A stretch of DNA of 64,000 bases from Actinomyces provencensis (lineage in GTDB: Bacteria; Actinomycetota; Actinomycetes; Actinomycetales; Actinomycetaceae). Positions within the stretch are counted from its first letter, which is position 1. The number at the start of each line of letters is the position of its first letter. Both the position numbers and the translations under genes were made by a program. Positions 36,039 to 62,396 of this stretch are shown here, piece by piece. The DNA is taken from contig NZ_LT700212.1 in the NCBI RefSeq assembly GCF_900155435.1, positions 872,844 through 936,843 of the forward strand, written 5' to 3'. The notes under the pieces are model-generated. The model was not told the DNA's origin. It ran no database searches and worked only from the letters and a program-made list of their open reading frames with translations.

Positions 36039-36127
36039 GCCTCATGATCTCACCCGTCCGTGCCTATGCCCTGGAACTACGCCGCTCATCCGGGTCGGGT
36101 GGGTGCGGACGGACGCGACCCGGCGGT

Positions 36128-36826: not shown

Positions 36827-36861
36827 GATCCCCTCAGTATCGCGTAGCATGGATGACAGAA

Positions 36862-36902
36862 AGCCCCGGTGGACCTCTGACCTCGGTCATGTCGCCGGGG
36901 CT
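36862..36902 (-). terminator. Terminator before the defence genes
   Basis: On the minus strand AGCCCCGG ... CCGGGGCT forms an 8-bp stem with an inner GACC/GGTC pairing, followed by TTCTGT. It directly follows the stop codon of the 74-aa ORF, so it should end transcription of the two small upstream genes and separate them from the Abi/ATPase set. Confidence 0.65.
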
Positions 36903-37126: not shown

Positions 37127-37136
37127 CACGCACCCC

Positions 37137-37490: not shown

Positions 37491-37724
37491 GGACAGACCT
37501 CTTCAAAGGTTCGGCGACAAGAACCTGAAAGGACCGCCCGTCCCCGGGAAGGTCATACCGTCGTAAGGAGCGACAGCGCCGCATAAGAGGCCGCCTCAGG
37601 AACTACTTTACGACGCCGCGCAGACACCCGGAAGAGGCGAAGGTGACCGGGCGCCCGCCCTCGCTGGGGTGTGCAGCTCGCGTGTGCGCTCCGCGTCTGG
37701 GCGTGTCCGTGGTGGACTTGAGGC

Positions 37725-38870
37725 ATGGATGATGCGTCGTTGCTGATCGACCAGCGCTCGGCCTCCCTGGCTGCCGCCGGGGAGGATGTGCGGGCGTGGG
37801 CGAGCGGGCGGCGGGTGTTCGTATCCAGCCTGATCACCGACATGCCCGACGAGCGGGCCGCGGTACGGGCAGCGATCGAGTCGGTCGGGGCGACGGCGGT
37901 GATGTTCGAGGATCTCGGAGCGCAGGACATCTCGGCCGAGCAGGCCTACCTCTCCGGCGTTCGCAGCTCCGAGGTCTACGTGGGCATGTGGGGTTCGCGT
38001 TACGGCGTGCGGATGCCCGACGGGTACTCAGCCACGCATGCGGAGTTCTTGGAGGCCGAGCGCAACGGACTGCGGCTGTGCCTGTTCGTGCACGGCGAGA
38101 CCGGCGGGGAGATGGACGGTGCGCAGCGCGATCTGATCCAGGGTGCCCGCAACCTGTACACGACGAGCCCGTGGAGTGACCCGGAAGACCTCGGTCGGCG
38201 GGTGCGACGTCGTCTGGAGGAGCTGGCGGCGGAGGAGCTGGCGCCGTGGGTGCGGGTGGGCCGGACTCTGTTTCGTGCGCGCGAGATCACCAACGACGGG
38301 AAGACGATCTCGCTCACCGCGGCGGTGCGCAGCGACGCGGTCCATGCCGAGCTGGTGCGGCTTCGGGACAACCGTGCCGGCGGTGTCCCGTTCGCCTCCC
38401 CTCATACCGCGCTGCCAGTGCAGATCGTGGAGCTGTCCACCAGGACCGTCTCGACGATCGGTCATGAGGAGCGGCTGACGTTGGTCACCCAGGAGCAGCG
38501 GGGCTCGAACATGCGCGCATCCATCAACGGAATATCGGCTGACGAGGTCAGCCAGCGGGCGCTGTCCGACGGGCTCTTCGGCACCTCGCTGCTCGGCCAG
38601 CAGATGGGGTGGATGGCACGGCCGATCGATCCTCTGGCACCACTTCGGGGACTGGGCCTGGACGACAGCGTCCTGCGTCCAGTGGCGCGACTGCTGTTCA
38701 CTGAACGCCTGATCACAGACCAGGCCGCGTCCATGATCGACTCCTTCGCGCTCGGCCCCTCCCATCAGGGCGCGCGACGTCTACGGGCCACCTGGACCCC
38801 GCCGCAGGTCTACGTGAACGAACCCGACCCAGCACCCATCTCGATCGACGGCACCGTGACGGGCCTGTGA
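37725..38870 (+). CDS. DUF4062-domain protein (candidate defence sensor)
   Basis: A 381-residue protein. The N-terminal DUF4062 domain (RRVFVSSLITDMPDERAAVRAAIESVGATAVMFEDLGAQDISAEQAYLSGVRSSEVYVGMWGSRYGVRMPDGYSATHAEFLEAERNG in outline) resembles a TIR/SEFIR-like Rossmann fold found at the N-terminus of many bacterial STAND-type defence proteins. The remaining ~220 residues have no NTPase motif and resemble nothing I know. It stands alone between the small membrane protein and the relaxase, facing the relaxase 3' end. Role in immunity or signalling is inferred only from the domain. Confidence 0.75.
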   Translation: MDDASLLIDQRSASLAAAGEDVRAWASGRRVFVSSLITDMPDERAAVRAAIESVGATAVMFEDLGAQDISAEQAYLSGVRSSEVYVGMWGSRYGVRMPDGYSATHAEFLEAERNGLRLCLFVHGETGGEMDGAQRDLIQGARNLYTTSPWSDPEDLGRRVRRRLEELAAEELAPWVRVGRTLFRAREITNDGKTISLTAAVRSDAVHAELVRLRDNRAGGVPFASPHTALPVQIVELSTRTVSTIGHEERLTLVTQEQRGSNMRASINGISADEVSQRALSDGLFGTSLLGQQMGWMARPIDPLAPLRGLGLDDSVLRPVARLLFTERLITDQAASMIDSFALGPSHQGARRLRATWTPPQVYVNEPDPAPISIDGTVTGL

Positions 38871-38930
38871 TCGAGACGGGTCCTCAGAGAACGGACTTGC
38901 GCGGTGCGGGTCTTGCGGATCGGCTCAGTC

Positions 38931-38978
38931 CGCTCCAGGTTCGTGTGATGAGAGCGCTCCAGGTTCGTGTGATTAGAG
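38931..38978. repeat. 24-bp tandem repeat (2 copies) at relaxase 3' end
   Basis: CGCTCCAGGTTCGTGTGATG plus AGAG at 38931-38954 is repeated at 38955-38978 with a single G/T change. The second copy includes the relaxase stop codon. It lies in the ~100-bp gap between DUF4062 and the relaxase. Possible uses are a protein-binding iteron or a remnant of recombination. Confidence 0.85.
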
Positions 38979-41900
38979 ACTGAGTGGGTCCCGCTCCTGC
39001 GTGCGATGCGTTGTGGGCTCATCCGAGTTGTTGATGATTCGGCTGACGTGGTCGAGGGCGGTCTTCGCGCGGGCGGCGTCGACCTTCTGCGCGGTCGACG
39101 CCGCCGGGGCACCCAAGGGTGTGTCGTCAGTGATGCCATATCGGTCGCGGTAGGCCGCGACCGTCCTGCCCTGCTGGCGCCATGCCCGCCGCTGTGCCGC
39201 CGTCCGCGGCGGTGTCCCAAGGGGTGCGGTCCAGGCGGCGCCCTGGTCGAGAGCGGTGTCGAGGACGGCATCGGCTCGGTGCTCGATCAGCTCGCGCCGC
39301 TCATCGAGGGCGTGGCGCATGTCGTCGCTCATCTCGCCCTGGGCATGCGGGATGAGCCCCGCGATCAGCCTGGGGCTCTTGCGGGTGCGCCCGGACCCGG
39401 CCGGGCGAGCGGTGGCGCGGGCGAGCCGGTGGTGCAGGACCGACGCGAGGTCGTCAGCATCGGCGAGGTCGCGCGCGGCGACCAGGCGCGGGAACAACCG
39501 GTCCAGGTCGTGGTGGTTGGCCTCCGCCCTCCGCAGCTCGGCGGTGAGCGCCCCGAACGCCTCGGACTCCACCACAGCATCGGCTTGCTCGGCAGTCAGG
39601 CCGGAGCCGCGGATGAGGGTGGCCCAGCGGTCGTGTTGGGCTGCTGCGGCGATGGTCTCGTACTCGGCGGCGAGCTGGGCGATCGAGCCCCACTGCTCCT
39701 GTTCGGCGGTGATGGTCTCGTGTGCGGACAGCTCCGCACCGACGTGCTGGAACACCCCGTAGAGGACTGACCGGCCGGTGGCGTCGGGGTTGTCGCTGGG
39801 ATGCGGGTGGGCGTGCTCGTCGGGCCGGTCGAGGATCACGTAGGCGCGGTTGGTGTGCTTGCCGCGGGTCATCGCGACGTAGAAGTTCTCCCGCGTGCTC
39901 GTCGGCTCGACCAGGACGTGGGCGGTATCGACGGTGACGCCTTGCGCACGGTGGGCGGTGATCGCGTAGCCGAGGTCGAGGTGCTCGGCCACATAGTTGG
40001 CTGGCAGCACGATCGAGCCGCCGAACCGACGCCCGGTCGGGCGGATCGTGACAGAGCCGTCGTCGCGGACCTTGGTGATGGTCCAGGTGTCGCCGTTGCG
40101 GACCCAGTCCCGTCCGTTGCGCAGGCGCCGGTCGTTGCGGCGGGTGATGACCGTGTCCCCCGCCCCGGCCGTGGTGCCATCGGTCAGGGCGACCTCGCGG
40201 CCCGGTGTGAGGGTGCCGTCGAGGATCAGGTCCGCGCGGGCACGGGTGTTCAGGGCGGTGACGTCCTCGCGTGCCTCGGCGATCAGCACCGACGCGAGAC
40301 CGGTTTGGCGATCGGCGCGCCAGGCGGTGTAGGCGGCTTCGGTCATTGCCTCGGCGTTGCCCTCGTGGATGCGGTCGTGTTCGAGGTAGGTGTCGATCAC
40401 CTCGGTCCGGCCGTGCCGCAGGCTGAGGGAGGCGGTCTTCTCCCACTCGTGGCTGAACCGGTGCACGTCGACCAGCTCGGGGGCGTCATCACGGTCGCCC
40501 ACGAGGAGGCCGAAGGCGCCGCCGGCGTCGACGGACTGGAGCTGCGCGATATCGCCGACCAGCAGCACCTTCGCGCTCGCCTGCTCGGCCAGGTGGGTGA
40601 TGCGGTCCAGCGAGAGGGTGCCGGCCAGGGAGGCCTCGTCGATGATGACGAGCTGCCCCGCCTCGAACGTGGTGCCGTGGGTGAGGTGGTTGGTCCACCA
40701 CTTCGCCGTGTTCTCCGTGGCGACCCCGAGATCGTCGGCGAGCACCTGGGCGGCGACCGCGGACGCTGCCAGCCCGACCACGGACCCTGTGCCGTGCTCG
40801 GTCTCCCAGGCTTGCCGCAACCCGAACATCGCTGTGGTCTTCCCGGCGCCGGCCGGACCGACCAGCACGTCGAGCATCCGCCCGGAGACCGCGATGCGTG
40901 TCAGCGCGTCCGCCTGGTCGGCACCGAGCATCCGTCCCTGGTGGTCGGGCTTGGTGGTGATCTTCTCGACAGTCGCCACCGGAACGGTCGGGGCGGTCAT
41001 GGTGCGGGTGCGGTCGAGCAGCCGGTCCTCGCTGGCGAGGAGTTCCTCGGAGGAGAACACGGTCGAGTGCTTCGGCCGGAACACCGAGGTGCCGTCCACG
41101 CGGCGGAACACGGCCGGGCTGGTCGCCAGGTCCGGCGGCGTCAGCCGCAACGACACGGCTTCGGCTGCGTCAGCGACCATCGCGACGATCGCCTCCCGGT
41201 CCTGCATGGACGCGAAGCGCCAACCCATCGTCTGCCGGGAAGCCTCGGCCATCAGGTTCCACCGCCGCCACGTCGAGCGCTTCTCACCCACCACCGCCAC
41301 CACGCTCTGGCCGAGATCAGCGACCACTTCCAACGGCACGTCGTCAGCGCGCAACAGCAACGGCTGGTCGTTGTCAGTCACCTCGCGCGCCCAGGCCGTC
41401 GCGTCCTTTCCGAGCACCCCGCCGGCGCGGGCGCGCCACTCGGCGGTGAGGTCTGCCAGCGACCGCACCTCCTTCTCCGGCCGGGTGGACAGGGTGGCTT
41501 GGGCGCGGAGTTTGATGATCGTCGCCGTCGAGGGCTGGCGGCCGTGCCGGGCGACGTACTCGGCGATCAGCAGGTCCTTCTCCACCTCGATGTGCCGGGC
41601 ACGGGTGGAGAACTCGGCCACCAGCTCCTCCGGCACGGTGCTGATCGCCCAGGCGGGGTTGCGGTCCCGGCCCATGTCGCGGGCCTCCCATTCGACGCCG
41701 AAGCTGCGGGTCATGTGGTCGGCGAACACCGCCTCGTGCAGCTCCGACAGCGCGACCACCGCGGCGTGCATCGGCCGCCCATCCAAGCTCCGCCACTTCC
41801 CATCAAGCACGGTCTGCACCTTGTTGCTGATCACGACATGGGTGTGGAGGTGGGGATCGCCCGCGCGGGAGTCGAAGTGATCGAACGCCGTCGCTACCAG

Positions 41901-42518
41901 CCCGGCGACATCGACCTGCGCAACGGCACCGTCGCCCGCGGTTGCACCGGTGCGGGTGGCCGCAACCTCTCGCTCCATGAACGCAACCACCTCCGCAACC
42001 GCCGCGTGATGCGCCTCCCCGATCAACGCCTGGGTGCCTGCGTCGGCCACCGCCCACAACGCCGAGGCGGACTTCGGGATCGAGAACGTGAAGTCGAACC
42101 CCGCCACCCCACGACGCTTCCCACGCTCGGCCTCCTCGCTCTCGATCCGAGCGACCGCCTCGCCTTTCGCGCCCGGACTCAGCGATGGGTCGAGGTCGGC
42201 GATCCGGGCCTCGATCCGCTCCGGGACTGACTTGTAGGCCGGGAACGCGAGGCCGAGCGGGTCGCCGGTGATCGGATCACGGCCCATTCCCATCACGAGC
42301 TGGAGCTGGGCCTCCGACACCCGATCCCCGACCGCGAGTTGCCCATTGCCGAGTGAGGCGACCCCAGAGCCGAGCCATTGCCCGGGTGGGGTGCCAGCCT
42401 CGGCGTAGTACCTCGTCAACGGCGTCGACAGTGAGCGGTCCCCATCAGCGGCAGCCACCGTGCGCAGCAGGTACTTGTAGCCGTCGCCGGCGCTCATCAC
42501 CCGCATCGAAACCGTCAC
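38973..42518 (-). CDS. MobF conjugative relaxase-helicase (TraA/TrwC type)
   Basis: An 1181-residue relaxase. The N-terminal TrwC domain begins TVSMRVMSAGDGYKYLL (Tyr near residue 14) and has the three-His metal motif in HFDSRAGDPHLHTHVVISNKV near 213-229. A RecD-like helicase follows with Walker A LVGPAGAGKTTAMFGL near 552, LVIIDEASLAG, LLVGDIAQLQSVDAGGAF and late motif LGYAITAHRAQGVTVD...ENFYVAMTRGKH. It nicks oriT, pilots the strand and unwinds the DNA. Start GTG 42518 is supported because the first residues are conserved in MobF proteins of actinobacterial ICEs. Unlike most tra genes here it is on the minus strand. Confidence 0.95.
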   Translation of the reverse strand: MTVSMRVMSAGDGYKYLLRTVAAADGDRSLSTPLTRYYAEAGTPPGQWLGSGVASLGNGQLAVGDRVSEAQLQLVMGMGRDPITGDPLGLAFPAYKSVPERIEARIADLDPSLSPGAKGEAVARIESEEAERGKRRGVAGFDFTFSIPKSASALWAVADAGTQALIGEAHHAAVAEVVAFMEREVAATRTGATAGDGAVAQVDVAGLVATAFDHFDSRAGDPHLHTHVVISNKVQTVLDGKWRSLDGRPMHAAVVALSELHEAVFADHMTRSFGVEWEARDMGRDRNPAWAISTVPEELVAEFSTRARHIEVEKDLLIAEYVARHGRQPSTATIIKLRAQATLSTRPEKEVRSLADLTAEWRARAGGVLGKDATAWAREVTDNDQPLLLRADDVPLEVVADLGQSVVAVVGEKRSTWRRWNLMAEASRQTMGWRFASMQDREAIVAMVADAAEAVSLRLTPPDLATSPAVFRRVDGTSVFRPKHSTVFSSEELLASEDRLLDRTRTMTAPTVPVATVEKITTKPDHQGRMLGADQADALTRIAVSGRMLDVLVGPAGAGKTTAMFGLRQAWETEHGTGSVVGLAASAVAAQVLADDLGVATENTAKWWTNHLTHGTTFEAGQLVIIDEASLAGTLSLDRITHLAEQASAKVLLVGDIAQLQSVDAGGAFGLLVGDRDDAPELVDVHRFSHEWEKTASLSLRHGRTEVIDTYLEHDRIHEGNAEAMTEAAYTAWRADRQTGLASVLIAEAREDVTALNTRARADLILDGTLTPGREVALTDGTTAGAGDTVITRRNDRRLRNGRDWVRNGDTWTITKVRDDGSVTIRPTGRRFGGSIVLPANYVAEHLDLGYAITAHRAQGVTVDTAHVLVEPTSTRENFYVAMTRGKHTNRAYVILDRPDEHAHPHPSDNPDATGRSVLYGVFQHVGAELSAHETITAEQEQWGSIAQLAAEYETIAAAAQHDRWATLIRGSGLTAEQADAVVESEAFGALTAELRRAEANHHDLDRLFPRLVAARDLADADDLASVLHHRLARATARPAGSGRTRKSPRLIAGLIPHAQGEMSDDMRHALDERRELIEHRADAVLDTALDQGAAWTAPLGTPPRTAAQRRAWRQQGRTVAAYRDRYGITDDTPLGAPAASTAQKVDAARAKTALDHVSRIINNSDEPTTHRTQERDPLSL

Positions 42519-42695
42519 CGGACCACCGCCTTTCGGCAGTCAGGTGAGCAGCAGACGCCCGTGACCTCCGCCCCGGAAATGCCCGCCGCTGGTGCGGCCG
42601 GCCGCGGCATCCGGCATCCACTGCTTGGCTCCGTCAGTTCGCCACGTCGATGCTGACGTGCATCTCCGGCATCCGGGTGCTGGGAGACTGGTGGG
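42519..42695. promoter_or_regulatory. Relaxase/Mrr intergenic region, candidate oriT
   Basis: A 177-bp gap between divergent relaxase and Mrr-type genes. It contains a 6-bp inverted repeat CACGTC-GATGCT-GACGTG (42643-42660) and repeated GGCATCCGG words (around 42606-42617 and 42668-42677). oriT of MobF relaxases usually lies next to the relaxase gene and has inverted repeats near the nick, so this is the best oriT candidate. No nick sequence can be assigned from sequence alone. Confidence 0.35.
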
Positions 42696-43868
42696 GTGAA
42701 TCTCGACGAGTTGCTACCGGTGATGGATCGCGCCTCGGCGAACCTTGCCAAGCTCCAAGCGATCTGGGACCGTGCGGAGCCGATGATCCCGTCGAGTCCT
42801 CAGCGGGGTACGAATCGGGAGTATGAGGATCTGCGTCGGGCATGGACGCCACTGTTGGCGGGGCTGCCTCCGATCGACGGGTTCACAGTCACCGAGGAGC
42901 TGCCCGACATTGACGAGGCGGGGCAATCCTTCATCGACTACTTCGAGATCAGCGAGCCTGCTTTCGCTCTCATGAACGAGTTGGAGAAGCCGGGCCAACA
43001 GCTCGACGAGTACAGATTCAAACTCGCTCAAGCGCGTCGCCGGGCGATTCACGAGCGCCTCGACGATCTCGTGTCGACGATCAACGCGACGCTTGGTCAG
43101 ATCACTGATTCCGTTGCGCGGGACTCATCCGATCGCGTGGACGATCTCAGAACGAAAGCGGTGGAGGAGTCGATCAGCGAGATCGAGCGGTTGCTCGCCG
43201 ACACCACTGACCGAAAGGGACGATGGGGCGATCTTCACCGGCACCTCCGTTTCAGTCAGGGGCACGATTGGCACGACATCGCCGAGATGGATTGGCCGTC
43301 TGTCCGGGCTGACATTGAGGCCGCGAGCCTCTCCGAGTCCGACCCTTTGCCGGTGCCAGCGGTTGACCTCGGCGTAGCTGCTTCCGCGAAACCCGCAGGT
43401 GGCGCAAGCATCGGCCTCGATTGGAGTGCCCTTGATGACGACGGCTTCGAGCGACTGCTGTTTGACCTTCTACGGGGCTTTCCCAGCTACCAGAACGTCG
43501 AGTGGTTGATGAAGACGCGCGCGCCCGATCGGGGCCGCGATCTGTCCGCTGAACGCGTCATAAGGGACGACGGCGGGACGACGCGAACCGAGCGGGTCAT
43601 CGTGCAGGCCAAGCACTGGACGTCGAAATCCGTCGCACCTACCGACATCACGAATACCCTGGCGGCGCTGTCGCTCTGGGAGCCGCCGGTCGTTCGGACT
43701 TTGGTGATCGCGACGAGCGGTCGCTTCACCACCGACGCGGTGGCGATTGTCGAGAAGCACAACGTCGATGGGAAACTGCCGTTCATCGAGCTTTGGGCAG
43801 ATAGCCGCCTCGAAACGCAGTTGTCGCAACGACCGGATCTGATCGCGAGCTACGGCCTCCGCTCGTAA
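42696..43868 (+). CDS. Mrr-like restriction endonuclease
   Basis: A 390-residue protein. The N-terminal ~230 residues are helical with coiled-coil stretches (AYKSV-free, LAQARRRAIHERLDDLVSTINATL, RVDDLRTKAVEESISEIERLLADT) and match nothing I recognise. The C-terminal ~150 residues are an Mrr-type PD-(D/E)xK nuclease: DDDGFERLLFDLLRGFPSYQNVEW, APDRGRDLSAERVI near residue 277 and ERVIVQAKHW near 303, giving the D...QxK active site, then VVRTLVIATSGRFTTDAVAIVEKHN. Solo Mrr enzymes cut modified or foreign DNA. It is divergent from the relaxase. GTG start, 42696. Confidence 0.82.
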   Translation: MNLDELLPVMDRASANLAKLQAIWDRAEPMIPSSPQRGTNREYEDLRRAWTPLLAGLPPIDGFTVTEELPDIDEAGQSFIDYFEISEPAFALMNELEKPGQQLDEYRFKLAQARRRAIHERLDDLVSTINATLGQITDSVARDSSDRVDDLRTKAVEESISEIERLLADTTDRKGRWGDLHRHLRFSQGHDWHDIAEMDWPSVRADIEAASLSESDPLPVPAVDLGVAASAKPAGGASIGLDWSALDDDGFERLLFDLLRGFPSYQNVEWLMKTRAPDRGRDLSAERVIRDDGGTTRTERVIVQAKHWTSKSVAPTDITNTLAALSLWEPPVVRTLVIATSGRFTTDAVAIVEKHNVDGKLPFIELWADSRLETQLSQRPDLIASYGLRS

Positions 43869-53588: not shown

Positions 53589-55244
53589 GTGTTGAAGAAG
53601 GTCACGGTCGCCGCGCTGTTCCTGGTGTTCTTCGGACCCGCCCTGGCGTTGCTGTCGGTCGGGGTGCTGATGAACCCCGCCGCCACCGCGACCGTCACCT
53701 GCACCGTCAACGGAGGGGTCACGGTCGGAGACGTCCCTGACGAGCTGGAAGTCACCACCGCCAACGGCGAGACGTTCACCCTCAACCGGCAACAGCTCAC
53801 CCACGCCGCCACGATCATCGAGACCGGCTCCGGCATCGACGGAGTGACCCGCGACGGCCTCGTCATCGCGTTGATGGCCGCGCTCACCGAATCCACCCTG
53901 CGGATGCTCTCCAACACCTCCGCCTACCCCGAGAGCGCGAACTACCCCAACGACGGCGACGGCTCCGACCACGACTCGTTGGGCCTGTTCCAGATGCGGC
54001 CCCAGTCCGGCTGGGGCACCGTCGCCGAGCTGATGGACCCCGTCTACCAGGCGCAGGCGTTCTTCGGCGGCCCCACCGGACCCAACCACCCGAGCCCGCG
54101 GGGCCTGTTGGACATCCCCGGCTGGGAACAGATGGACAAGGGCGAGGCCGCCCAAGCCGTCGAAGTGTCCGCCTACCCGGACCGGTACCGCAACTACGAG
54201 CCGGTCGCCGAGAACATCCTTGCCACCCTCACCACCACGACAGCCGGCGCCAGCGAGGCGAGTGACGACGGAGTCGTTCCGGTCGCACAGGCAGCCGGGC
54301 CGGAGTCGTCGCGGGTGGTATTCCCGGTCCCGGAGGGCACCTGGGTGCTCACCAGCGAGTACGGGCCGCGGGCGCATCCCATCACCGGACAGGACTCCTT
54401 CCACACCGGCACCGACTTCGCCGCCCCCGACGGCACCCCGCTCCTCGCCGCCGCCGATGGCGTGGTCACGGTCGCGGAGTTCAGTGGCGGGTACGGCGGG
54501 CTCATCGTCATCGAGCACACCATCTACGGGCAGACCGTCGCCACGGCATACGCGCACATGTGGGAGCACGGCATCCACGTCCAAACCGGCGACACCGTGA
54601 CCGCCGGGCAGCACATCGGCGACATCGGCTCCTCGGGCAACTCCACCGGCCCGCACCTGCATTTCGAGGTCCGCCTCGGCGGCACCGATGGTGAGCACAC
54701 CGACCCCGCCGCCTGGCTCAACAGCCATGACGCGGCCGACCTGCCCGAACCCGAGACCGGCACACCCGGCCAGGACTGCGACCCCGACACCGACACTCCC
54801 GGTCAGGCGCCGCAACCGTACGACGGCGACCCGAACCAGATGGTCGACGACCCCACCAGCGACGGCCAGATCACCGCCCGCATGCTCCACCTCTACCAGC
54901 AGACCATCGCCGCGTTCCCCGACACCTCCTGGGCCTGCTACTCACCCCGCCCCGGCACCAGCTCCGAACACCCCCTCGGACGAGCATGCGACGGCACCTT
55001 CGGCAACGCCATCGGCCAGCACCCCACCCCCGCACAGCGCGAGCTCGGCTGGGACGTCACCAACTGGATGCAGGACCACGCCGAAGCCCTGGGCGTGGAG
55101 TACCTGATCTGGGACGGCCGCATCTGGTCCCTGGCCCGCGACGCCGAAGGGTGGCGCCCCTACGACGGCGGCGGCATGCACAACCCCGGCGACGTCACCG
55201 GCGGCCACTACGACCACCTGCACGTCACCGTCCGGGCCAACTGA
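53589..55244 (+). CDS. Conjugative cell-wall hydrolase with M23 peptidase domain
   Basis: A 551-residue exported protein. The N-terminal membrane segment is VAALFLVFFGPALALLSVGVLM. A lysozyme/transglycosylase-like region follows (LVIALMAALTESTLRMLSNTSAY...DHDSLGLFQMRPQSGWGTVAEL). The M23 LytM-type peptidase contains HTGTDFAAPDGTPLLAAADG near residue 270 and HLHFEVRLGG near 355, the zinc ligands. A C-terminal domain (EHPLGRACDGTFGNAIGQ...GHYDHLHVTV) resembles a D-Ala-D-Ala peptidase-like or ARB_07466-type module. It opens peptidoglycan for the mating channel. Confidence 0.9.
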   Translation: MLKKVTVAALFLVFFGPALALLSVGVLMNPAATATVTCTVNGGVTVGDVPDELEVTTANGETFTLNRQQLTHAATIIETGSGIDGVTRDGLVIALMAALTESTLRMLSNTSAYPESANYPNDGDGSDHDSLGLFQMRPQSGWGTVAELMDPVYQAQAFFGGPTGPNHPSPRGLLDIPGWEQMDKGEAAQAVEVSAYPDRYRNYEPVAENILATLTTTTAGASEASDDGVVPVAQAAGPESSRVVFPVPEGTWVLTSEYGPRAHPITGQDSFHTGTDFAAPDGTPLLAAADGVVTVAEFSGGYGGLIVIEHTIYGQTVATAYAHMWEHGIHVQTGDTVTAGQHIGDIGSSGNSTGPHLHFEVRLGGTDGEHTDPAAWLNSHDAADLPEPETGTPGQDCDPDTDTPGQAPQPYDGDPNQMVDDPTSDGQITARMLHLYQQTIAAFPDTSWACYSPRPGTSSEHPLGRACDGTFGNAIGQHPTPAQRELGWDVTNWMQDHAEALGVEYLIWDGRIWSLARDAEGWRPYDGGGMHNPGDVTGGHYDHLHVTVRAN

Positions 55245-55252
55245 CGGTCGTA

Positions 55253-55984
55253 TCAGTGGGCGCAGCAGTGACCGCTGGGGTGGGCATCGCTGTACTGGTC
55301 GTGAAGGTCCCACCACACATATGGCTCGCCCTGGGGTCGCCCGGCAGGGCTGTCTTCCCAGCTCTCCTGGCGTCCAAGCGGTGTGAGATCCAGCAGGGGG
55401 AAGAGTGGGCCGAGGGTCTCCACGGCTCGTGCGTTGGTGAAGTAGCTGCGGTACACCTGGTCGTGGTCGCGGACGAAGACATTGAACCCGAAGAACTCCG
55501 GCACGTCGAAGTCCTGCTCGAAGTCGCTGTCGACCATGGTGTACCAGGGCACGCCATGCCAACCCATCCGGGCTCGGTACCGAGCGATGAGGTCTTGCGA
55601 TGCGGTCGAGACCATCGCGAACGTCGTGTCGCGTGCGTTCAGATGCGCGGGATGAACCAGGCTGTCGGCCAACAGGGAACATCCCGAGCAGGCCCCCTCG
55701 GGCCAGTTCTCCACATCGGGTGCGTAGAAGAATCGGTACACGATGAGCTGATGGCGGCCCTCGAACATCTCCAGCAGGTCGAGCCGGCCGTCTGGACCTT
55801 CGAAGGAATAGTCGTGGTGCACGCGCGTCATCGGCATGCGGCGGCGTTGGGCCGCCAGCGCATCGCGGGCCGCAGTCAGTTCCTTCTCTTTGAGGAGCAA
55901 CTCCTGCAACCGCTGCCGCCACTGGTCTTCATTGACGATCTCGGGCCACGTGATGGGCCCGGATGTGGACGGAGCGTCAACCAT
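55253..55984 (-). CDS. DUF899 thioredoxin-like protein (cargo)
   Basis: A 243-residue DUF899 protein: EKELTAARDALAAQRRRMPMTRV, YSFEGPDGRLDLLEMFEGRHQLIVYRFFYAPDVENWPEGACSGCSLLADSLVHPAHLNARDTTFAMVSTA and FNVFVRDHDQVYRSYFTN are family blocks, and CSGC is a thioredoxin-like Cys pair. Members are thought to be thiol-linked oxidoreductases of unknown substrate. It lies on the minus strand inside the rightward transfer operon, converging with the M23 gene, so it is inserted cargo. Confidence 0.9.
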   Translation of the reverse strand: MVDAPSTSGPITWPEIVNEDQWRQRLQELLLKEKELTAARDALAAQRRRMPMTRVHHDYSFEGPDGRLDLLEMFEGRHQLIVYRFFYAPDVENWPEGACSGCSLLADSLVHPAHLNARDTTFAMVSTASQDLIARYRARMGWHGVPWYTMVDSDFEQDFDVPEFFGFNVFVRDHDQVYRSYFTNARAVETLGPLFPLLDLTPLGRQESWEDSPAGRPQGEPYVWWDLHDQYSDAHPSGHCCAH

Positions 55985-56201
55985 CGGGTCCTCCTCTCAG
56001 TAGCGTCCAGAGTATCTGGGCACAGCGCAACCTGTCCCGGCCACGACACAACCACGTGCGAATTAACCGGCGCACCGTGCATCTGATGACGACCACAGCC
56101 GGCACCTCACTGCCCATGCGGGACACCACCATGCGCACCTGACAGGCATGGATTTCGAACGCTTTGAATACTTGCCTGCGCCGGTTGAGAGCTGAGTCGT
56201 G

Positions 56202-56468
56202 ATGGACGTGTTCCCCGATTTCGAGGGCCTCGGTGGGATCGGTGAGCTGCGCGAGGTCATCGGCGCTCTCCTCACCTTCGTACTCATCATCGCCGTACTC
56301 ATGCTGATCGTGTCGGCGATCATCTGGGCTGTCGCCTCCGCGCACGGCAACCACGCCACCGCTTCCAAAGCTCGCACCGGCATCCTCGTCGCCCTCGGCA
56401 CCGCCGCGCTCGCAGGCGGCGGGGTCGCGTGGATGAACTGGCTGATCGCTCTGGGCGACCAGATTTAG
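56202..56468 (+). CDS. DUF6112-type small membrane protein (copy 1)
   Basis: An ~88-residue protein with two membrane helices (VIGALLTFVLIIAVLMLIVSAIIWAVAS and TGILVALGTAALAGGGVAWMNWLIALG) after a short polar N-terminus. It is plainly homologous to the 106-residue protein at 59137, with the same LR.(V/I)(V/I)GA...L(I/V)SAI.W pattern. Size and topology recall VirB2/TrbC-type pilins. It is separated from its paralog by the disrupted nuclease gene and IS630. GTG 56199 is an alternative start. Confidence 0.8.
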   Translation: MDVFPDFEGLGGIGELREVIGALLTFVLIIAVLMLIVSAIIWAVASAHGNHATASKARTGILVALGTAALAGGGVAWMNWLIALGDQI

Positions 56469-56507: not shown

Positions 56508-56939
56508 CTAGAACGGGAGCCCTGTCGAGGAAGTGTCGGGAAACGCCGCTGCTGACTCGGATTCAGTGTCTTCTTGCCACTCCGTCCTGATCGCGATGAT
56601 CAGTTCCCGGTCAGATCCGAGCTTCTCCATCGCTTTTCTGAATGCCTTGGAACGCGTACTCGCTGTTCCGACGAATCCACGCGAGATGAGTTGAGTGAAG
56701 GCCTTCCGCCCTAGGTACTTCGCATTCCTGTAGGTAACTCGGAAGCCTTCTCGGGGCCCGACTTTGAATGTGGAATCAGTCATGGCTAGTCGTATCCAGT
56801 CAACGGAGACGTACATGCCTTTAAGCGTCTGTCCGTCGAGTTTACGACCAGCGTCTCCACGCACGAACTTGAACCAGAATGGTGTCTCGAATGCTCGCCA
56901 GTCTGCCGCGCTCTTTGGGATCTCACGACCTCTTGGCAT
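56508..56939 (-). pseudogene. C-terminal half of IS630-disrupted nuclease-like gene
   Basis: The frame (143 residues from the first ATG: MPRGREIPKSAADWRAFETPFWFKFV...) is the continuation of the 307-residue ORF at 58114-59037. Removing the IS630 element and one TA copy gives ...NEIEKQL-GL-MPRGREIP... in one frame, a protein of ~452 residues. The fragment has its own possible ATG but no good ribosome-binding site. Lower GC than the surrounding transfer genes marks it as cargo. No domain is recognised in this half. Confidence 0.8.
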
Positions 56940-56947
56940 GAGGCCTA

Positions 56948-58116
56948 TAGCGTGAACAGAACGAGTTCTTACAGTTTGTAGGGGAATGTGTTTCCGGTGA
57001 TGAATGTTTCGAACGCGTGGCGGGTCTGTTCGAACGTGTCGCGTTGGAGGTTGGAGATCTGGGCCTTGGCTTCTGCCCAGACGTGTTCGATGGGATTGTG
57101 GTCGGGAGCGTAGGGCGGCATGTTGATCAAGTGAATACCGGCCAGCGTCTGGTTGGTGGCGAGTTCATGGCGGAGTTTCTTCGACTTGTGCCAGCCTGCA
57201 TTGTCCCACACGATGGTGATCTTGTGGCCCTTGTGGTGGAGTGCGAAACTGGTGAGCGCAGTGATGATGGTGTCACTGTTTTGCCACTCGACTGCTTCCA
57301 GGTGCACGCTACCCGTCTTCTGGTCGAGGAACCCGATGTAGGACTGGGCCTGACGCTGACGGTCGACCTTCAGCTTCGTCTTCTCACCCCGCTTGTACCA
57401 TGCCCGCCGCGTGATCGCCTCGTGCTCAAGGCGGACCTCATCTGCTGCCACCACAATCACCTCAGGGTCGGCGAGGTCCTCAGCGAGCTCCGCCTGGATC
57501 TCCCCCATGCGCACCTCAATCACATCGTCGCTGGCCCGGCGCTTGTCGAACGCTTCCACACCATGGAAGGACAAGCCTGCTTGGTGGAGGAGGAACACCA
57601 AGGACGTGTCACTGTCGTAGGTCACCTCGAAGCGGTCACTGACCCACGCGCTCAGTGCAGGCACCGTCCAAAACCCACTCGGCACCAAGTCCGGGGAGGG
57701 TGGTTGGGACAGGACCTCCATGACTTCCTCCCGTTGGGAGACAGTCAGCTTGGAAGCATTCAGGTTCCCCAACTTGAAGTCATGGATGGACGCCAACCGA
57801 CACTCCCCAAAGTCCCTCTTCCACTGATTGACCGTGGAGGGCTGACGTCCGACAATGCGAGCAACGAAATCAATGCCTGCACCTTCGGCGAGCATGAGCA
57901 TTGCCTCAGCCTTCTCACGCATCAAGACCGTCGGCCCGTGTCTCTTGTGGTCAAGAAGAATATCCCATTCTTCCACCGTCACCTCAATCTTTCCCATAGC
58001 GTAATTCTACGGGCCCGCTCACACATTTTGGCGTTATCACCAAAGCGTGTCCGGATTACGATCGCGAAATATCGACAGGCAATTCTGAACCATCAGAACT
58101 CGTTCTGTTCCCGCTA
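56948..58116 (-). mobile_element. IS630-family insertion sequence
   Basis: About 1.17 kb bounded by 24-bp terminal inverted repeats with one mismatch: left 56946-56969 (begins TATAGCGTGAACAGAACGAG) and right 58095-58118 (its complement reads TATAGCGGGAACAGAACGAG). TA dinucleotides at 56946-56947 and 58117-58118 fit the TA target duplication of IS630/Tc1-mariner elements. It contains a single transposase ORF and interrupts a host gene of the ICE. Confidence 0.92.
56969..57997 (-). CDS. IS630-family transposase
   Basis: A 342-residue intact DDE transposase. The N-terminal helix-turn-helix is AEGAGIDFVARIVGRQPSTVNQWKRDFGECRLASIHD. The catalytic triad lies in VIVVAADEVRLEHE near residue 180, ITIVWDNAGWHKSK near 262, and NMPPYAPDHNPIEHVWAEAKAQI near 300. 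The full length and intact motifs suggest it could still be active. Both ends of the gene lie within ~120 bp of the terminal repeats. Confidence 0.95.
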   Translation of the reverse strand: MGKIEVTVEEWDILLDHKRHGPTVLMREKAEAMLMLAEGAGIDFVARIVGRQPSTVNQWKRDFGECRLASIHDFKLGNLNASKLTVSQREEVMEVLSQPPSPDLVPSGFWTVPALSAWVSDRFEVTYDSDTSLVFLLHQAGLSFHGVEAFDKRRASDDVIEVRMGEIQAELAEDLADPEVIVVAADEVRLEHEAITRRAWYKRGEKTKLKVDRQRQAQSYIGFLDQKTGSVHLEAVEWQNSDTIITALTSFALHHKGHKITIVWDNAGWHKSKKLRHELATNQTLAGIHLINMPPYAPDHNPIEHVWAEAKAQISNLQRDTFEQTRHAFETFITGNTFPYKL

Positions 58117-59037
58117 TAACTGCTTCTCGATCTCATTCTTACGCCGATAGGCCCACTCGTAGGTGCCGCTTCCGTCGCCACTGTCGACGCGTTCGAGCCT
58201 CTTGTACTGGACGAAGGTGAAGGCGTCGTGCGCTTGGTCCCAGTAGAGGAGGTCGACGCCGAGTTCTTCCTCGATGGGCTTCTTGTTGACGGACATGACC
58301 AGTAGCTTCCGCTGTCCGTCTCGGTCCTCGAACACCGCAAGGCTCGCCGCTCGTTGGTTGGCGATGAGCTTGCCATCGAAGCGCTGAATATCAAGCGGCA
58401 GCAGTTCCTCTTCCATATCTCGTTCGTAACCAGCGTTCAGCACGGTGTCGAGGAGAGTCTCTTTCTCCTCCACGCTGGGTGGCTCGCTAAAGGCATCTGC
58501 AGGGAGCGGAACTTCGGCAATCTGCGAAGCCAACAGGACGGCGTCTCGTGCCTCGACTCTCGACTGCTGCACGTCATCATTGAACGTGCGCGGTTCTCTG
58601 AACACTGAGTCCAGCCAGGGGTCGACCGTCGGATCGAACTGCCTGAGATATTCCAGGAGAGCCCTAGCTGTAGGGCCGTCAAGTCGGCGGGCGTAGAAAT
58701 GTTGCGGCATCGACGGTATCGAGACTGCCTGCTCTCGCAACTGCCCGAGATCGAGAGGTGAGAGTAGGCGGAGGATTGGCGACAAGGTCGCACGTAGCGT
58801 TCCGCTCGCAATCCCTGCGACCCCGCGCGTGACAGCCAAACCGATCAGGAACTCCCCGGGGCCGAGTTCTTCATCTCCCTCGCGGACGATGGCGCAGAGG
58901 GAACCCACAGTCGGCGTGGATTCCTTGTCGAACGCTTCGCTGATCTTCTCGGCACTCAGGTAGCTGATCCGATTCGCGCCCTTCGCGTGCACGACATACA
59001 TCACTAGGGGCTTCACTGTCTTGGCGCTTCCCCTCAT
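58114..59037 (-). pseudogene. N-terminal part of IS630-disrupted nuclease-like gene
   Basis: A 307-residue ORF whose stop codon TAG is supplied by the IS630 end; before insertion it ran on into 56508-56939. Residues ~270-290 read EELGVDLLYWDQAHDAFTFVQYKRLE, a D...(E/Q)xK arrangement typical of PD-(D/E)xK nucleases. LLPLDIQRFDGKLIANQRAASLAVFEDRDGQRKLLVMSVNKK provides preceding strands. The first ~200 residues are unrecognised. Location within ICE cargo, low GC and the nuclease-like core suggest a defence gene, now broken. A truncated product may still be made. Confidence 0.78.
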
Positions 59038-59136
59038 CCCCCGATCTTAGGCGGGGCCCTCGGCACGCCGTGGGCATGCGGTGCACCTGGCTGGCAAGTC
59101 CGGCAAGTGCCGGTCCATCAGCAGAAGGAGCCCATC

Positions 59137-59457
59137 GTGTTCGACCTCGCCACCGTCCTCCTCGCCGCACCCGTCGTGGTGCCGATGGACATCAACATCG
59201 ACCCCAACTCTGATGGCCTGCCCGGCATCGCGCAGCTGCGGACCATCGTCGGCGCCGTCATGACGGTCGGCCTCATCCTCTCCGTCCTCGCCCTCATCAT
59301 CTCCGCGATCGTGTGGGGCTTCGGCGCCAACTCCTCCAACCCCCACCTCGCGGGCCGGGGGAAGGTCGGCGTCCTCGTCTCCTGCGGCGCCGCCGTCATC
59401 TGCGGGGCGTCGGTGACGCTCATCAACTTCTTCTGGAACGTCGGCCAGCAGGTCTGA
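59137..59457 (+). CDS. DUF6112-type small membrane protein (copy 2)
   Basis: A 106-residue protein. The GTG at 59137 is chosen because AGAAGGAG lies 6 nt upstream; the upstream ATG (59107) has none. A hydrophobic leader (FDLATVLLAAPVVVPM) precedes DGLPGIAQLRTIVGAVMTVGLILSVLALIISAIVWGFGA and GKVGVLVSCGAAVICGASVTLINFFWNVG, giving two membrane helices. It is paralogous to the protein at 56202. Directly upstream of the TrbL-like gene, it is a good pilin/VirB2-like candidate. Confidence 0.85.
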   Translation: MFDLATVLLAAPVVVPMDINIDPNSDGLPGIAQLRTIVGAVMTVGLILSVLALIISAIVWGFGANSSNPHLAGRGKVGVLVSCGAAVICGASVTLINFFWNVGQQV

Positions 59458-59495
59458 CCCGCCCACGCGATCGAGCAAGGAAAGCGGGTCTTGTG

Positions 59496-60917
59496 ATGGG
59501 TGTCTGCGACGTCCCTGTCATCTCCTCCGTGTGTGACGCGGTCGGTGAAGGTGCGGCCAGTCTGGTGGCGGCGCCGTTCGACTGGCTGGCCCAAGCGATG
59601 GGCGCTGCGGCCGGGTGGCTGTTCGAGGCCGTGTGGGCGGTGTTCGACACCACCACCCTCGTGGATGTCACCAGCGACGAGTACGTGGCGGTCTACAACA
59701 TCCTCTTCGGCATCGCCGTATTCGTGATGCTGATCTTCTTCTGCCTCCAGCTCATCACCGGCCTCATCCGCCGCGACCCCACCGCACTCTCCCGCGCCGC
59801 GTTGGGGTTGGCGAAGTCCGTGCTGGGGTCGTTCGTGGTCATCACGCTGACCGCCTTGTTGTTGGAGATCGTCGACCAGCTCTGCGTCGGGATCATCCAG
59901 GCCGCCGGGGAGACCACCGAGAGCATGGGCGACAAGATCGCCCTGCTCGCCGCCGGCCTGGTCGGCATCAACATCGCCGCCCCCGGCGTCGGGGCGATCA
60001 TCACGATCTTCCTCGCCGGCCTCGCCATCGCCGCCGCCGCGATCGTCTGGCTGAGCCTGCTGGTGCGCAAGGCGCTGCTGCTGGTGGCGATCGTATTCGC
60101 CCCGCTGGCGTTCTCCGGCGCATCGTGGGACGCCAGCCGGGGGTGGATCAGCAAGTGGGCCATGTTCGTCATCGCCCTCATCTGCTCCAAGCTCGTCCTG
60201 GTCGTGATGTTCCTCGTCGCCATCACCCAGGTCAGTGCGCCGATCGACGGGGACCTGGCCTCGGTGGCCGACCCGATCGCGGGAATCGTGCTCATGGCGA
60301 TGGCCGCGTTCGCGCCCTATCTGACGTACAAGTTCATCGCGTTCGTCGGGTTCGACATGTACCACGCCATCGGCTCCGAACAGGACGCCAAGAACGCCCT
60401 CAACCGTCCCGTCCCGGTCCCCTCCAAGCCCGGCGGCAACGGCGGTAGCGAGCCGAAGAAGGTCCTCGACGGCAACGACGGTGGAGGCGACGGGGGCGGT
60501 GGGAAGAAACCGCCGGAGCCGAAGAACCCTGCACCAGCGTCCTCCAGCGGCACCGCCGGCGCAGGCGGCAAGACCGCCGCCGGCAGCTCCGCAGGAGCCG
60601 GTGCCGGTGGCGGGGCCGGAGCGGGCGCTGGGGCCGGCGCGGGTGCGGCGGCTGGCCCAGCCGCGGCCGCGGTGGTGGCCGCGAAAGTCGCCAAAGACGC
60701 CGCCACCGCCGGTCCCAAGGCCGGCAAGACCCTCGGTAACCAGGGCGAGAGCGCCGCCGACTCCGCGGGCCAGACCGGCACCACCCCGCCGCCCGCCCAG
60801 GCACCCCCGCCCTCGACCCCGGCACCACAGACACCCTCGGCAGGCCCATCGGCGCCGGAGTCGCGTCCGCCGAAGCAACCACCGCCGCCGGCGCCGAAGC
60901 CGACCGGAAAGGAGTGA
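59496..60917 (+). CDS. TrbL/VirB6-like conjugal transfer membrane protein
   Basis: A 473-residue polytopic protein. About seven hydrophobic segments occupy residues ~60-300 (NILFGIAVFVMLIFFCLQLITGLI, VLGSFVVITLTALLLEIVDQL, VGAIITIFLAGLAIAAAAIVWLSLLV, ALLLVAIVFAPLAFSG, WAMFVIALICSKLVLVVMFLVA, IAGIVLMAMAAFAPYLTYKFIAFVG), with the conserved FAPLAF...W...W segment of TrbL proteins. The C-terminal ~170 residues are Gly/Ala/Pro-rich and disordered. It forms the inner-channel component of the T4SS. GTG 59493 is an alternative start. Confidence 0.88.
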   Translation: MGVCDVPVISSVCDAVGEGAASLVAAPFDWLAQAMGAAAGWLFEAVWAVFDTTTLVDVTSDEYVAVYNILFGIAVFVMLIFFCLQLITGLIRRDPTALSRAALGLAKSVLGSFVVITLTALLLEIVDQLCVGIIQAAGETTESMGDKIALLAAGLVGINIAAPGVGAIITIFLAGLAIAAAAIVWLSLLVRKALLLVAIVFAPLAFSGASWDASRGWISKWAMFVIALICSKLVLVVMFLVAITQVSAPIDGDLASVADPIAGIVLMAMAAFAPYLTYKFIAFVGFDMYHAIGSEQDAKNALNRPVPVPSKPGGNGGSEPKKVLDGNDGGGDGGGGKKPPEPKNPAPASSSGTAGAGGKTAAGSSAGAGAGGGAGAGAGAGAGAAAGPAAAAVVAAKVAKDAATAGPKAGKTLGNQGESAADSAGQTGTTPPPAQAPPPSTPAPQTPSAGPSAPESRPPKQPPPPAPKPTGKE

Positions 60918-60923: not shown

Positions 60924-62396
60924 ATGTCCGCAAAGCAGAACGAACCCGCCGCGTCGTCGGGCGAGCTGGTGCCGGTGAAGTTCTCCCGCCTCACCCGCCG
61001 CGGCGTGCTCCTGGGGCTGTCGCTGGCGCAGCTCATCACCCTCGCCATCGGCATCCTCTCCATCGTCGGCGCGCTTTACGCAGGCGGCGGCATCCTGCTC
61101 GCCTACACCGCCCCCATCTGGGTCGTAGCGGCCTGCATGACGTGGATACCGGTGGCGGGCCGTCCGGCGGTGGAGTGGCTACCGGTCGCGTGCTGGTGGC
61201 TGTGGCGCACCACCGGCGGCCAGCTCCTCTACCGACGCCGGGTGGTCAAGCCCCGACCGGTAGGGACACTCGCGCTACCCGGCGACCAGGCGCGGTTGCG
61301 GGAATACACCGACCCCGAAACCGGGGCCGGAATGATCCACGACCCCACCGCCAACACGCTGACCGTGGTCTGCGAGGTCACGCATCCCGCGTTCGTGCTC
61401 CTCGATCCCGGCGAGCAAGAACGACGCGTCACCTCCTGGGGCCGCGTCCTCGCCACCGTCTGCCGATCCGGCCGCATCGCGACCTTGCAGGTGCTGGAAC
61501 GGACGCTGCCGGACTCCGGCACCGGACTCGCGGAATGGTGGGCCAGCCACGGCACCGCCGACGACACCTGGGCCGCGACCACCTACGCCGAGCTGATCGA
61601 CCGGGCCGGACCGGCCGGCGAGCGACACGCGACCACCCTGTCGCTGGCGCTGGACATGAACGCCAGCGCACGGCAGATCAGGACCGCCAGCGGCGGCCTG
61701 CGTGGCGCGGCCGCGGTACTGCGGCAAGAGATGAACACCCTGATCGCTGCCCTCCGCTCCGCCGACCTGGCACCCTCGGGATGGCTCACACCGGGGCAGA
61801 TCGCGGTGATCCTCCGCAGCGCGTATGACCCGGCGATCGCCGCCACTCTCGAGCGCCACGGCCAGCTCGGCCAGTCCCTCGCCACCGCCGGCCCGGTCGC
61901 GGTCAACGAGTCCTGGTCGCGGCTGCGCACCGACTCGGCGCACCATGCGGTGCTGTGGGTCTCCGAGTGGCCGCGGTCGCTGGTGTATCCGGGGTTCCTG
62001 TCCCCGGTCCTCCTCTCCACGGGCATCCAGCGCAGCTTCTCGTTGCTGTGCACGCCGATGCGCTCCGACGCTGCCGCCCGTGACATCCGCAAGAAGAAGG
62101 TCGAACACATCTCCGACCAAGCGCAGCGAGCCAAGATCGGACAGATCGAGGACGCCGCCCAGACCGCCGAGTACCACGACGTGCTCCAACAGGAAGCCGA
62201 CCTCACCGCCGGCCACGGCGTCCTGCGCTACACCGGCCTCATCAGCGTCTCCGCCCCCACCGTGGAAGAACTCGACGCGGGCGTGGCGGCGATCGAACAG
62301 GCCGCCATCCAAGCCTCCTGCGAGACCCGCCTCCTCGTCGGCCAGCAAGCCGCCGCGTTCACCGCCGCCGCCCTCCCGCTCTGCCGCCGCATCTGA
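60924..62396 (+). CDS. SCO6880-family T4SS membrane-anchored protein
   Basis: A 490-residue protein. The N-terminus carries a PrgI-like pair of membrane helices (GVLLGLSLAQLITLAIGILSIVGALYAGGGILLAYTAPIWVVAACMTWIPV). A large cytoplasmic domain like the VirB4 N-terminal region follows (RRVTSWGRVLATVCRSGRIATLQVLERTLPDSG...SWSRLRTDSAHHAVLWVSEWPRSLVYPGFLSPVL...SFSLLCTPM...RAKIGQIEDAAQTAEYHDVLQQEADLTAGHGVLRYTG). SCO6880-like proteins always sit just upstream of the VirB4-like ATPase in actinobacterial ICEs and probably dock it. Confidence 0.9.
   Translation: MSAKQNEPAASSGELVPVKFSRLTRRGVLLGLSLAQLITLAIGILSIVGALYAGGGILLAYTAPIWVVAACMTWIPVAGRPAVEWLPVACWWLWRTTGGQLLYRRRVVKPRPVGTLALPGDQARLREYTDPETGAGMIHDPTANTLTVVCEVTHPAFVLLDPGEQERRVTSWGRVLATVCRSGRIATLQVLERTLPDSGTGLAEWWASHGTADDTWAATTYAELIDRAGPAGERHATTLSLALDMNASARQIRTASGGLRGAAAVLRQEMNTLIAALRSADLAPSGWLTPGQIAVILRSAYDPAIAATLERHGQLGQSLATAGPVAVNESWSRLRTDSAHHAVLWVSEWPRSLVYPGFLSPVLLSTGIQRSFSLLCTPMRSDAAARDIRKKKVEHISDQAQRAKIGQIEDAAQTAEYHDVLQQEADLTAGHGVLRYTGLISVSAPTVEELDAGVAAIEQAAIQASCETRLLVGQQAAAFTAAALPLCRRI

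What the first reader, a model, noticed from the sequence alone, without database searches (positions are those of the whole stretch)
56508..59037. IS630 splits a single nuclease-like gene; TA removal restores the frame
Seen in sequence: the stop codon of the 58114-59037 ORF is made by the IS630 end. Deleting the element plus one TA joins ...NEIEKQL to GLMPRGRE... in frame, giving a ~452-aa protein with an LGVDLLYWD...FVQYKRLE nuclease-like core. Known: IS630 duplicates TA. Inference: a cargo defence nuclease was recently inactivated, perhaps because it was costly.
Basis: partly seen in the sequence, partly recalled or inferred. Interest (0 to 1): 0.75.

Follow-up and report, generated by a model that had tools for sequence, protein, structure and literature searches.

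The report
Transposon-split nuclease-like gene in ICE
A small jumping gene has landed inside, and so split, a nuclease-like gene carried by a mobile element in an actinobacterium; intact copies exist in relatives, so it is a clear case of a familiar kind of event, affecting a gene family without a name in the libraries used.

Summary
A 1,169-bp IS630-type element (56948-58116, TA on both sides) splits one minus-strand gene and supplies the stop codon of its 307-codon first part. All 6 close relatives found are uninterrupted 452-aa proteins, matching the pieces plus two codons (307+2+143). An identical IS copy elsewhere in the genome interrupts a CRISPR spacer; that unit measures 1,232 = 61+1,169+2 bp, an independent check of the element's ends.

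'Nuclease' rests on residues invariant in 12 of 12 aligned homologues (E209, D216, E256, D262, Q277-Y-K279). Pfam, NCBIfam, PADLOC, PHROGs, PDB and two structure predictions gave nothing usable. 'Defence cargo' is contextual: the gene lies between two DUF6112 genes of a conjugation operon, a slot holding 0.7 kb or more in 17 of 37 cases, sometimes PADLOC-matching genes; homologues precede Gabija genes on two plasmids. 'Recent' is supported: three identical IS copies, no decay in either piece. 'Because it was costly' is untested; the other two IS copies, in a spacer and in a transposase-like frame, suit ordinary TA-targeted spread.

The parts
58114..59037 (-). 5' piece of the split gene (307 codons); its stop codon 58114-58116 lies inside the IS end; carries the nuclease-like residues E209...D262...Q277-Y-K279
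56508..56945 (-). 3' piece of the split gene (ORF 56508-56939, 143 aa, plus two in-frame codons before its ATG); corresponds to the part with 7 of the 17 residues invariant in 12 homologues
56948..58116 (-). IS630-type insertion sequence, 1,169 bp; terminal inverted repeats of 22 bp with one mismatch (56948-56969 and 58095-58116)
56969..57997 (-). transposase, 342 aa, DDE_3 plus helix-turn-helix matches; 3 identical copies in the genome
56946..56947 (.). TA, one copy of the target duplication
58117..58118 (.). TA, other copy of the target duplication
56199..56468 (+). first DUF6112 gene, one border of the cargo slot
   Evidence: E 5.2e-47
59107..59457 (+). second DUF6112 gene, other border of the cargo slot (homology from about 59191)
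   Evidence: E 1.1e-23
59313..60917 (+). conjugation gene, similar to the SCO6881 family (122.8 bits, below the curated cut-off of 325)
60924..62396 (+). conjugation gene, SCO6880 family (456.6 bits, cut-off 60)
53589..55244 (+). peptidoglycan-peptidase-like (M23-like) gene of the same operon; its NCBIfam matches are below the curated cut-offs
55253..55984 (-). DUF899 gene, an additional insert between the M23-like and first DUF6112 genes; absent from that junction in 6 of 6 close relatives

Best explanation
A conjugative element of an Actinomycetaceae-type bacterium carries, on the strand opposite to its transfer operon and between two tandem DUF6112 genes, a single gene for a 452-aa protein that most likely is a stand-alone nuclease used against incoming DNA (phage or rival mobile element). 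An IS630-type element, which has three identical copies in this genome, recently transposed into a TA inside the gene. It ends the protein after residue 307 and cuts off the conserved C-terminal third, so the gene is very probably non-functional here. Shown: the split, the TA duplication, intact homologues at the same place in other elements, lack of decay, the slot being a variable insertion site. Inferred: nuclease activity, defence role, loss of function. Not shown: any selective reason for the insertion.
For: Six of 6 close relatives (Gulosibacter, Leucobacter, Mycetocola, and three MAGs labelled Actinomycetaceae, Propionibacterium and Microthrixaceae) are uninterrupted 452-aa frames; amino-acid identity 86-90% to the 5' piece and 79-84% to the 3' piece. 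In all 6 the gene lies between two DUF6112 genes, antisense to them. Three of 3 IS copies identical, each flanked by TA. CRISPR unit 1,232 = 61+1,169+2. Both pieces keep low dN/dS against relatives (5' 0.05-0.10, 3' 0.10-0.15), in or below the range between intact copies, with no stop or frameshift. The 5' piece has lower dN (0.055-0.076) than three of four element genes measured (0.17-0.22) at similar dS; the fourth, DUF6112, has dN 0.086-0.109 at dS 0.55-0.78. G+C of the pieces (0.60, 0.55) is below the operon's 0.71. Seventeen residues invariant in 12 of 12 homologues include E209, D216, E256, D262, Q277-Y278-K279. Slot: 17 of 37 intervals between adjacent DUF6112 genes are 0.7 kb or more; 3 of 10 insert ORFs scanned match PADLOC models, two of them PDC-S54 and PDC-S60. 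Homologues on two plasmids lie directly upstream of GajA, with GajB following in one.
Against: No Pfam, NCBIfam, PADLOC or PHROGs match in the proteins scanned; weak PDB sequence hits only, none to a nuclease. Profile comparison with Mrr_cat puts D262 and Q277-x-K279 on the Mrr residues but with probability 1-3%, and 1 of 30 shuffled controls scored higher. Both AlphaFold runs failed, mean pLDDT 31.7 and 31.4. Other slot inserts include a methyltransferase and an AraC-type regulator, and 5 of 10 scanned ORFs matched nothing, so the slot is not shown to be a defence site. PADLOC was run on neighbours in only 2 of the 9 plasmid neighbourhoods looked at. A Pseudorhizobium homologue ends just after Q-x-K (291 aa), so the C-terminal part may be missing from some natural forms, or that copy is broken too.
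Confidence: 0.6

Rival explanations
1. The insertion was selected: the nuclease cost its host or blocked a useful element, and cells in which the IS had silenced it won.
For: IS insertions into cas genes, and of IS1 and IS10 into 12 other defence gene clusters, are described as a fitness trade-off in PMC10359306 (abstract, section 14 and passages seen). In this genome the same IS also sits in a CRISPR array.
Against: The third copy lies in a frame that reads like another transposase, and the CRISPR copy interrupts one spacer of a 47-repeat stretch (though it may also split the array's transcript); three insertions at TA do not need selection. No fitness or population data.
Confidence: 0.2
2. 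The two pieces are still made and work as a split or shortened protein, since gene, transposase and 3' piece lie on the same strand, the 3' piece has its own ATG, and the 5' piece keeps the nuclease-like residues.
For: Orientation and an open frame of 218 codons around the 3' piece; both pieces show no decay; one plasmid homologue naturally ends just after Q-x-K.
Against: The break removes 7 of 17 residues invariant in 12 homologues from the catalytic piece; no decay is equally expected of a recent insertion; 13 of 13 chromosomal or ICE homologues read are full-length single frames.
Confidence: 0.08
3. The intact protein is not a defence nuclease but a DNA-processing or regulatory protein of the conjugative element itself.
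For: In all 6 close relatives it lies at the same place in the transfer operon and its 5' part has lower dN than three of four element genes measured; no known defence model matches it.
Against: 20 of 37 DUF6112 intervals are under 300 bp and, in the 14 other elements with longer ones, no homologue is found there, so this operon type does without it; homologues occur on unrelated proteobacterial plasmids, some beside Gabija or toxin-antitoxin genes; its G+C differs from the operon's.
Confidence: 0.2

Closest known systems
IS insertion into cas and other defence genes (PMC10359306)
   Same: An IS interrupts an immune or immune-like gene; the paper reports IS1 and IS10 in 12 defence gene clusters besides CRISPR-Cas, and its introduction cites IS insertion into CRISPR loci as already observed.
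   Different: Here the IS is IS630-type with a TA target (IS630 has 0 occurrences in that paper's main text), the gene family is not a described defence system, and no benefit of the insertion is shown.
Mrr-type PD-(D/E)xK restriction nucleases (Pfam Mrr_cat)
   Same: Spacing of D and Q-x-K; the best profile alignment puts these residues on each other.
   Different: Profile similarity is not significant (1-3% probability; 1 of 30 shuffles higher); no Mrr_cat match in any of 12 homologues; the conserved C-terminal part matches nothing in Pfam.
Gabija (GajA/GajB)
   Same: Homologues of the split gene lie directly upstream of GajA on a Dinoroseobacter and a Pelagibacterium plasmid.
   Different: The pieces and those two homologues match neither GajA nor GajB; no Gabija gene was noted beside the gene in the window.

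Membership tests
IS630 family | DDE transposase of the DDE_3 type with helix-turn-helix N-terminus | tested here: met
   DDE_3 E 2.6e-23; several HTH models, HTH_23 above its cut-off
IS630 family | TA target duplicated on insertion | tested here: met
   TA on both sides of 3 of 3 copies; CRISPR unit length 61+1,169+2
IS630 family | terminal inverted repeats | tested here: met
   22 bp, one mismatch
IS630 family | match to a named member in an IS reference collection | not testable with these tools
   no such collection is held; no plasmid record matches the element
PD-(D/E)xK nuclease superfamily | acidic residue, D and (D/E/Q)-x-K in order and invariant (signature recalled) | tested here: met
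   E209, D262, Q277-Y-K279 invariant in 12 of 12 aligned homologues
PD-(D/E)xK nuclease superfamily | significant profile similarity to a known branch (Mrr_cat tried) | tested here: inconclusive
   right register, probability 1-3%, 1 of 30 shuffles higher; other branches not compared
PD-(D/E)xK nuclease superfamily | the alpha-beta core fold | tested here: inconclusive
   two models with mean pLDDT about 31; not searched against structures because confidence was too low
known anti-phage systems (PADLOC) | match to a model | tested here: not met
   0 families for both pieces (E up to 10) and for the Dinoroseobacter and Pelagibacterium homologues (E up to 0.01)
Gabija | GajA or GajB similarity of the protein itself | tested here: not met

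The most novel reading that the evidence does not exclude
The intact gene founds an undescribed family of stand-alone defence nucleases, shared by actinobacterial conjugative elements and proteobacterial plasmids (sometimes coupled to Gabija), and exchanged through a cargo slot between two DUF6112 genes inside the transfer operon; a single active IS630 in this genome has hit both this gene and the CRISPR array, so innate-type and adaptive immunity are being eroded or varied by the same element.
Probability: 0.3. Interest if true: 0.6.

Novelty: new member of a known kind. Interest (0 to 1): 0.38.

Why it matters
The event itself is of a known kind (an IS breaking a defence-like gene). What could matter is the gene family, which has invariant catalytic-looking residues and no name in the libraries used, and the DUF6112-DUF6112 slot, which offers a place to look for further undescribed cargo in actinobacterial conjugative elements. 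Intact copies in Gulosibacter and Leucobacter make the function directly testable.

Tried and rejected
Halves being separate genes: rejected. Element ends lying at GCG with extra TA left over: rejected by the 452-codon length in relatives and by the 61-bp CRISPR period. Structure prediction on close relatives alone, and with one added viral-contig relative: both failed; no fold search was run on them. PDB by sequence and by profile: no usable hit. Relatives in viral contigs: none confirmed with the queries A2, A3 and A4, 1 with a proteobacterial alignment, the same one again. Phage records: no match. Mrr_cat profile comparison: inconclusive; 24 of the 29 matches were used, 5 (short, very long or with a stop) left out. 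Transposase in the genomes of 4 relatives: 0 of 4, and the tool warns that an empty answer shows little. Same IS in plasmid records: no match. Spacers of the CRISPR stretch against the DNA held then: one 16-base match, to the window, taken as chance. Papers: DUF6112, 0 papers; SCO6880, 1 paper, listing only; DUF6119, 1 paper, listing only; seen as listings, from which only PMC10359306 (outline with abstract, section 14, passages) and PMC10482375 (one passage) were opened. That the slot or the family is undescribed rests on these searches and the named libraries, no more.

Full report
WHAT WAS CHECKED. The transposase matches DDE_3 (E 2.6e-23) and helix-turn-helix models. The genome has three copies of this transposase at 100% identity. 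The whole 1,169-bp element, 56948-58116, is identical in 3 of 3 copies, with TA on both sides in all three. Its ends are 22-bp inverted repeats with one mismatch.

IS IT ONE GENE? Yes. A scan of the contigs of 84,980 genomes gave 6 loci, and in 6 of 6 the protein is one frame of 452 aa: Gulosibacter chungangensis, Leucobacter luti, Mycetocola reblochoni, and MAGs labelled Actinomycetaceae, Propionibacterium and Microthrixaceae. That scan uses short peptide patterns and finds close relatives only. Aligned to these, the window's pieces cover residues 1-307 and 310-452, the two residues between being coded before the ATG of the 3' piece. Seven distant homologues, in 7 of the 394 genomes searched of the class besides the window's own, also hold both halves in one frame (20-36% identity); one of them (L017) has a longer upstream frame, of which I used only part in alignments A3 and A5. 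A profile search of 396 genomes of the phylum rang in 4, the window's own and one from another class among them. Among 200 genomes of the family 2 have the gene: the window's and one other. Not all homologues are full length: of 10 plasmid records with a homologue, a Pseudorhizobium protein is 291 aa and ends just after Q-x-K, with no C-terminal match nearby, and a Pseudomonas protein is 373 aa and lies between two IS21 transposase genes.

AN INDEPENDENT CHECK OF THE ELEMENT'S ENDS. The second IS copy lies in a CRISPR array. In the 4-kb stretch read there are 47 repeats; of 46 repeat-to-repeat distances, 44 are 61 bp, one is 62 and one is 1,232. 1,232 is 61 + 1,169 + 2: element plus one TA, the boundary that also fits the 452-aa length. 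A Cse1 gene lies about 12 kb from this stretch. The third copy lies in an open frame that reads like an ISL3-type transposase (that name is recalled, not searched).

HOW RECENT? The three IS copies are identical over their whole length. Neither piece has a stop or frameshift. Window-to-relative dN/dS is 0.05-0.10 for the 5' piece and 0.10-0.15 for the 3' piece; between intact copies, leaving out two near-identical pairs, it is 0.04-0.15 and 0.12-0.22. So no decay is visible and the insertion is recent. One genome per species is held, so an empty site in the same species could not be sought. In 4 of the relatives' genomes the transposase was not found (0 of 4).

WHERE IT SITS. In the window and in 6 of 6 relatives the gene lies between two DUF6112 genes, on the opposite strand; in the window, and in the relatives whose DNA reaches that far, SCO6880-family and SCO6881-like conjugation genes follow. 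G+C of the pieces is 0.60 and 0.55 against 0.71 for the operon. Of 37 intervals, 17 are 700 bp or longer (8 of 20 from the family, 9 of 17 from the class; two of the 9 are in one element, G535) and 20 are under 300 bp. Two of the 17 hold this gene. The others, in 14 elements, were fetched, and none contains a homologue (tblastn E up to 0.1). One ORF from each of 10 of these 14 was scanned; L064, L067, L068 and L070 were not. PADLOC: PDC-S54 (E 1.2e-65), PDC-S60 (E 9.6e-23) and a partial mad2 match for what Pfam calls a methyltransferase; that PDC stands for phage-defence candidate is recalled. Pfam also gave Hypoth_Ymh, an AraC-type regulator and DUF4062 (below its cut-off). Five of the ten matched nothing in either library. 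The slot is thus a place of variable cargo, some of it defence-like. The genome's own second operon of this kind has an empty slot (L063).

WHAT IS THE PROTEIN? No family matched in Pfam, NCBIfam, PADLOC or PHROGs among the pieces and homologues given to each (in, 0 of 12 homologues). The best sequence hits in the PDB are weak and not to nucleases. In an alignment of 12 homologues (8 from chromosomes or ICEs, 4 from plasmids; the short Pseudorhizobium and Pseudomonas p1 proteins were not in it) 17 residues are invariant: E209, D216, E256, G260, D262, Y265, F273, Q277, Y278, K279, and, beyond the break, R324, K333, G350, Y352, G374, F390, G400. An acidic residue, then D, then Q-x-K is the signature of PD-(D/E)xK nucleases (recalled). 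In an alignment of six proteobacterial plasmid proteins, three of them also in the first set, the same acidic residues and Q-Y-K are invariant. Against this, a profile comparison with 24 Mrr_cat domains gave 1-3% probability, although D262 and Q277-x-K279 fell on the Mrr residues; 1 of 30 shuffled-column controls scored higher. Two AlphaFold runs failed (mean pLDDT 31.7 and 31.4). Nuclease is therefore the best reading, not a result.

IS IT A DEFENCE GENE? Of the 10 plasmid records I looked at the surroundings of 9. On a Dinoroseobacter plasmid the homologue is followed, 39 bp on, by GajA and then GajB, and on a Pelagibacterium plasmid by GajA (PADLOC, E 1.1e-178 or better). Neighbours in the other 7 were not run through PADLOC; by annotation one has toxin-antitoxin genes (Novosphingobium), one a restriction endonuclease nearby (Aurantiacibacter), and the rest show nothing clear. 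A relative in a viral contig is followed by an ATPase-like gene (my reading of the sequence). tblastn found no homologue in 50,697 phage records. The 5' piece has dN 0.055-0.076 at dS 0.76-1.07 and the 3' piece 0.083-0.136 at 0.83-0.92. Three element genes have dN 0.17-0.22 at dS 0.88-1.10; the neighbouring DUF6112 gene is nearer to the split gene, 0.086-0.109 at 0.55-0.78.

MOST LIKELY MECHANISM. A cargo nuclease that attacks incoming DNA, spread by conjugative elements through the DUF6112 slot, has been broken by a TA-targeting IS630-type element that is multiplying in this genome. The truncated product keeps E209, D262 and Q-x-K but lacks the part with 7 of 17 invariant residues, so loss of function is likely. 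It has no direct support here. The copies in a CRISPR spacer and in a transposase-like frame look like ordinary spread.

HOST. The window's genome is labelled as the same family as G005, whose first contig has the same length (937,120) as the contig titled Actinomycetaceae bacterium. That the host is an Actinomycetaceae is inferred from this. No drug-resistance gene was noticed among the window ORFs scanned with Pfam or NCBIfam (20, plus those); the rest of the window was not scanned for one.

VERDICT. Observation confirmed; interpretation partly supported; a new member of a known kind of event, in a gene family that the libraries used here do not name.

Noticed in passing
L002 (G000:C1:3046177-3050202): An identical copy of the IS630-type element interrupts a spacer of a CRISPR array (47 repeats in the stretch read, nearly all at 61-bp spacing); a Cse1 gene is about 12 kb away.
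   Followed up: partly
L003 (G000:C1:164481-168506): The third IS copy lies in an open frame that reads like an ISL3-type transposase (name recalled).
   Followed up: partly
window 55253-55984 (-): A DUF899 gene lies between the M23-like gene and the first DUF6112 gene; in 6 of 6 close relatives the matches of these two genes are only about 50-65 bp apart, so it is a further insert in the window.
   Followed up: partly
window 31665-43868: Defence-like genes in the same stretch: a PADLOC PDC-S06 match (33474-36038, E 6.3e-174), an HNH protein (31665-32663), DUF4062 (37725-38870), Mrr_cat (42696-43868).
   Followed up: no
L063 (G000:C1:2701000-2702700): The genome has a second DUF6112 pair of a like operon, with nothing in the slot (136 bp).
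   Followed up: no
L006 and L008; L010 and L011: The 5' part of the gene is 99.8% identical in DNA between Gulosibacter and Leucobacter, and 99.6% between Mycetocola and a MAG labelled Microthrixaceae: recent transfer between genera, or MAG contamination in the second case.
   Followed up: no
L080 6088-10966 (Pelagibacterium plasmid): The GajA beside the homologue matches only positions 1-455 of 570 of its model and is followed at once by IS3 and IS110 transposase genes, with a UvrD-helicase gene beyond: possibly another IS-broken defence system.
   Followed up: no
L084 5662-9960 and L116 (Pseudorhizobium and Pseudomonas plasmids): Two short homologues: one of 291 aa ending just after Q-x-K, followed by 3.4 kb without a listed gene; one of 373 aa between two IS21 transposase genes. 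Possibly further broken copies of the family.
   Followed up: partly
L081 5623-8615 (Paracoccus plasmid pAMI8): The homologue overlaps by a few bases with a DUF6119 gene downstream, suggesting a two-gene unit in some relatives.
   Followed up: no
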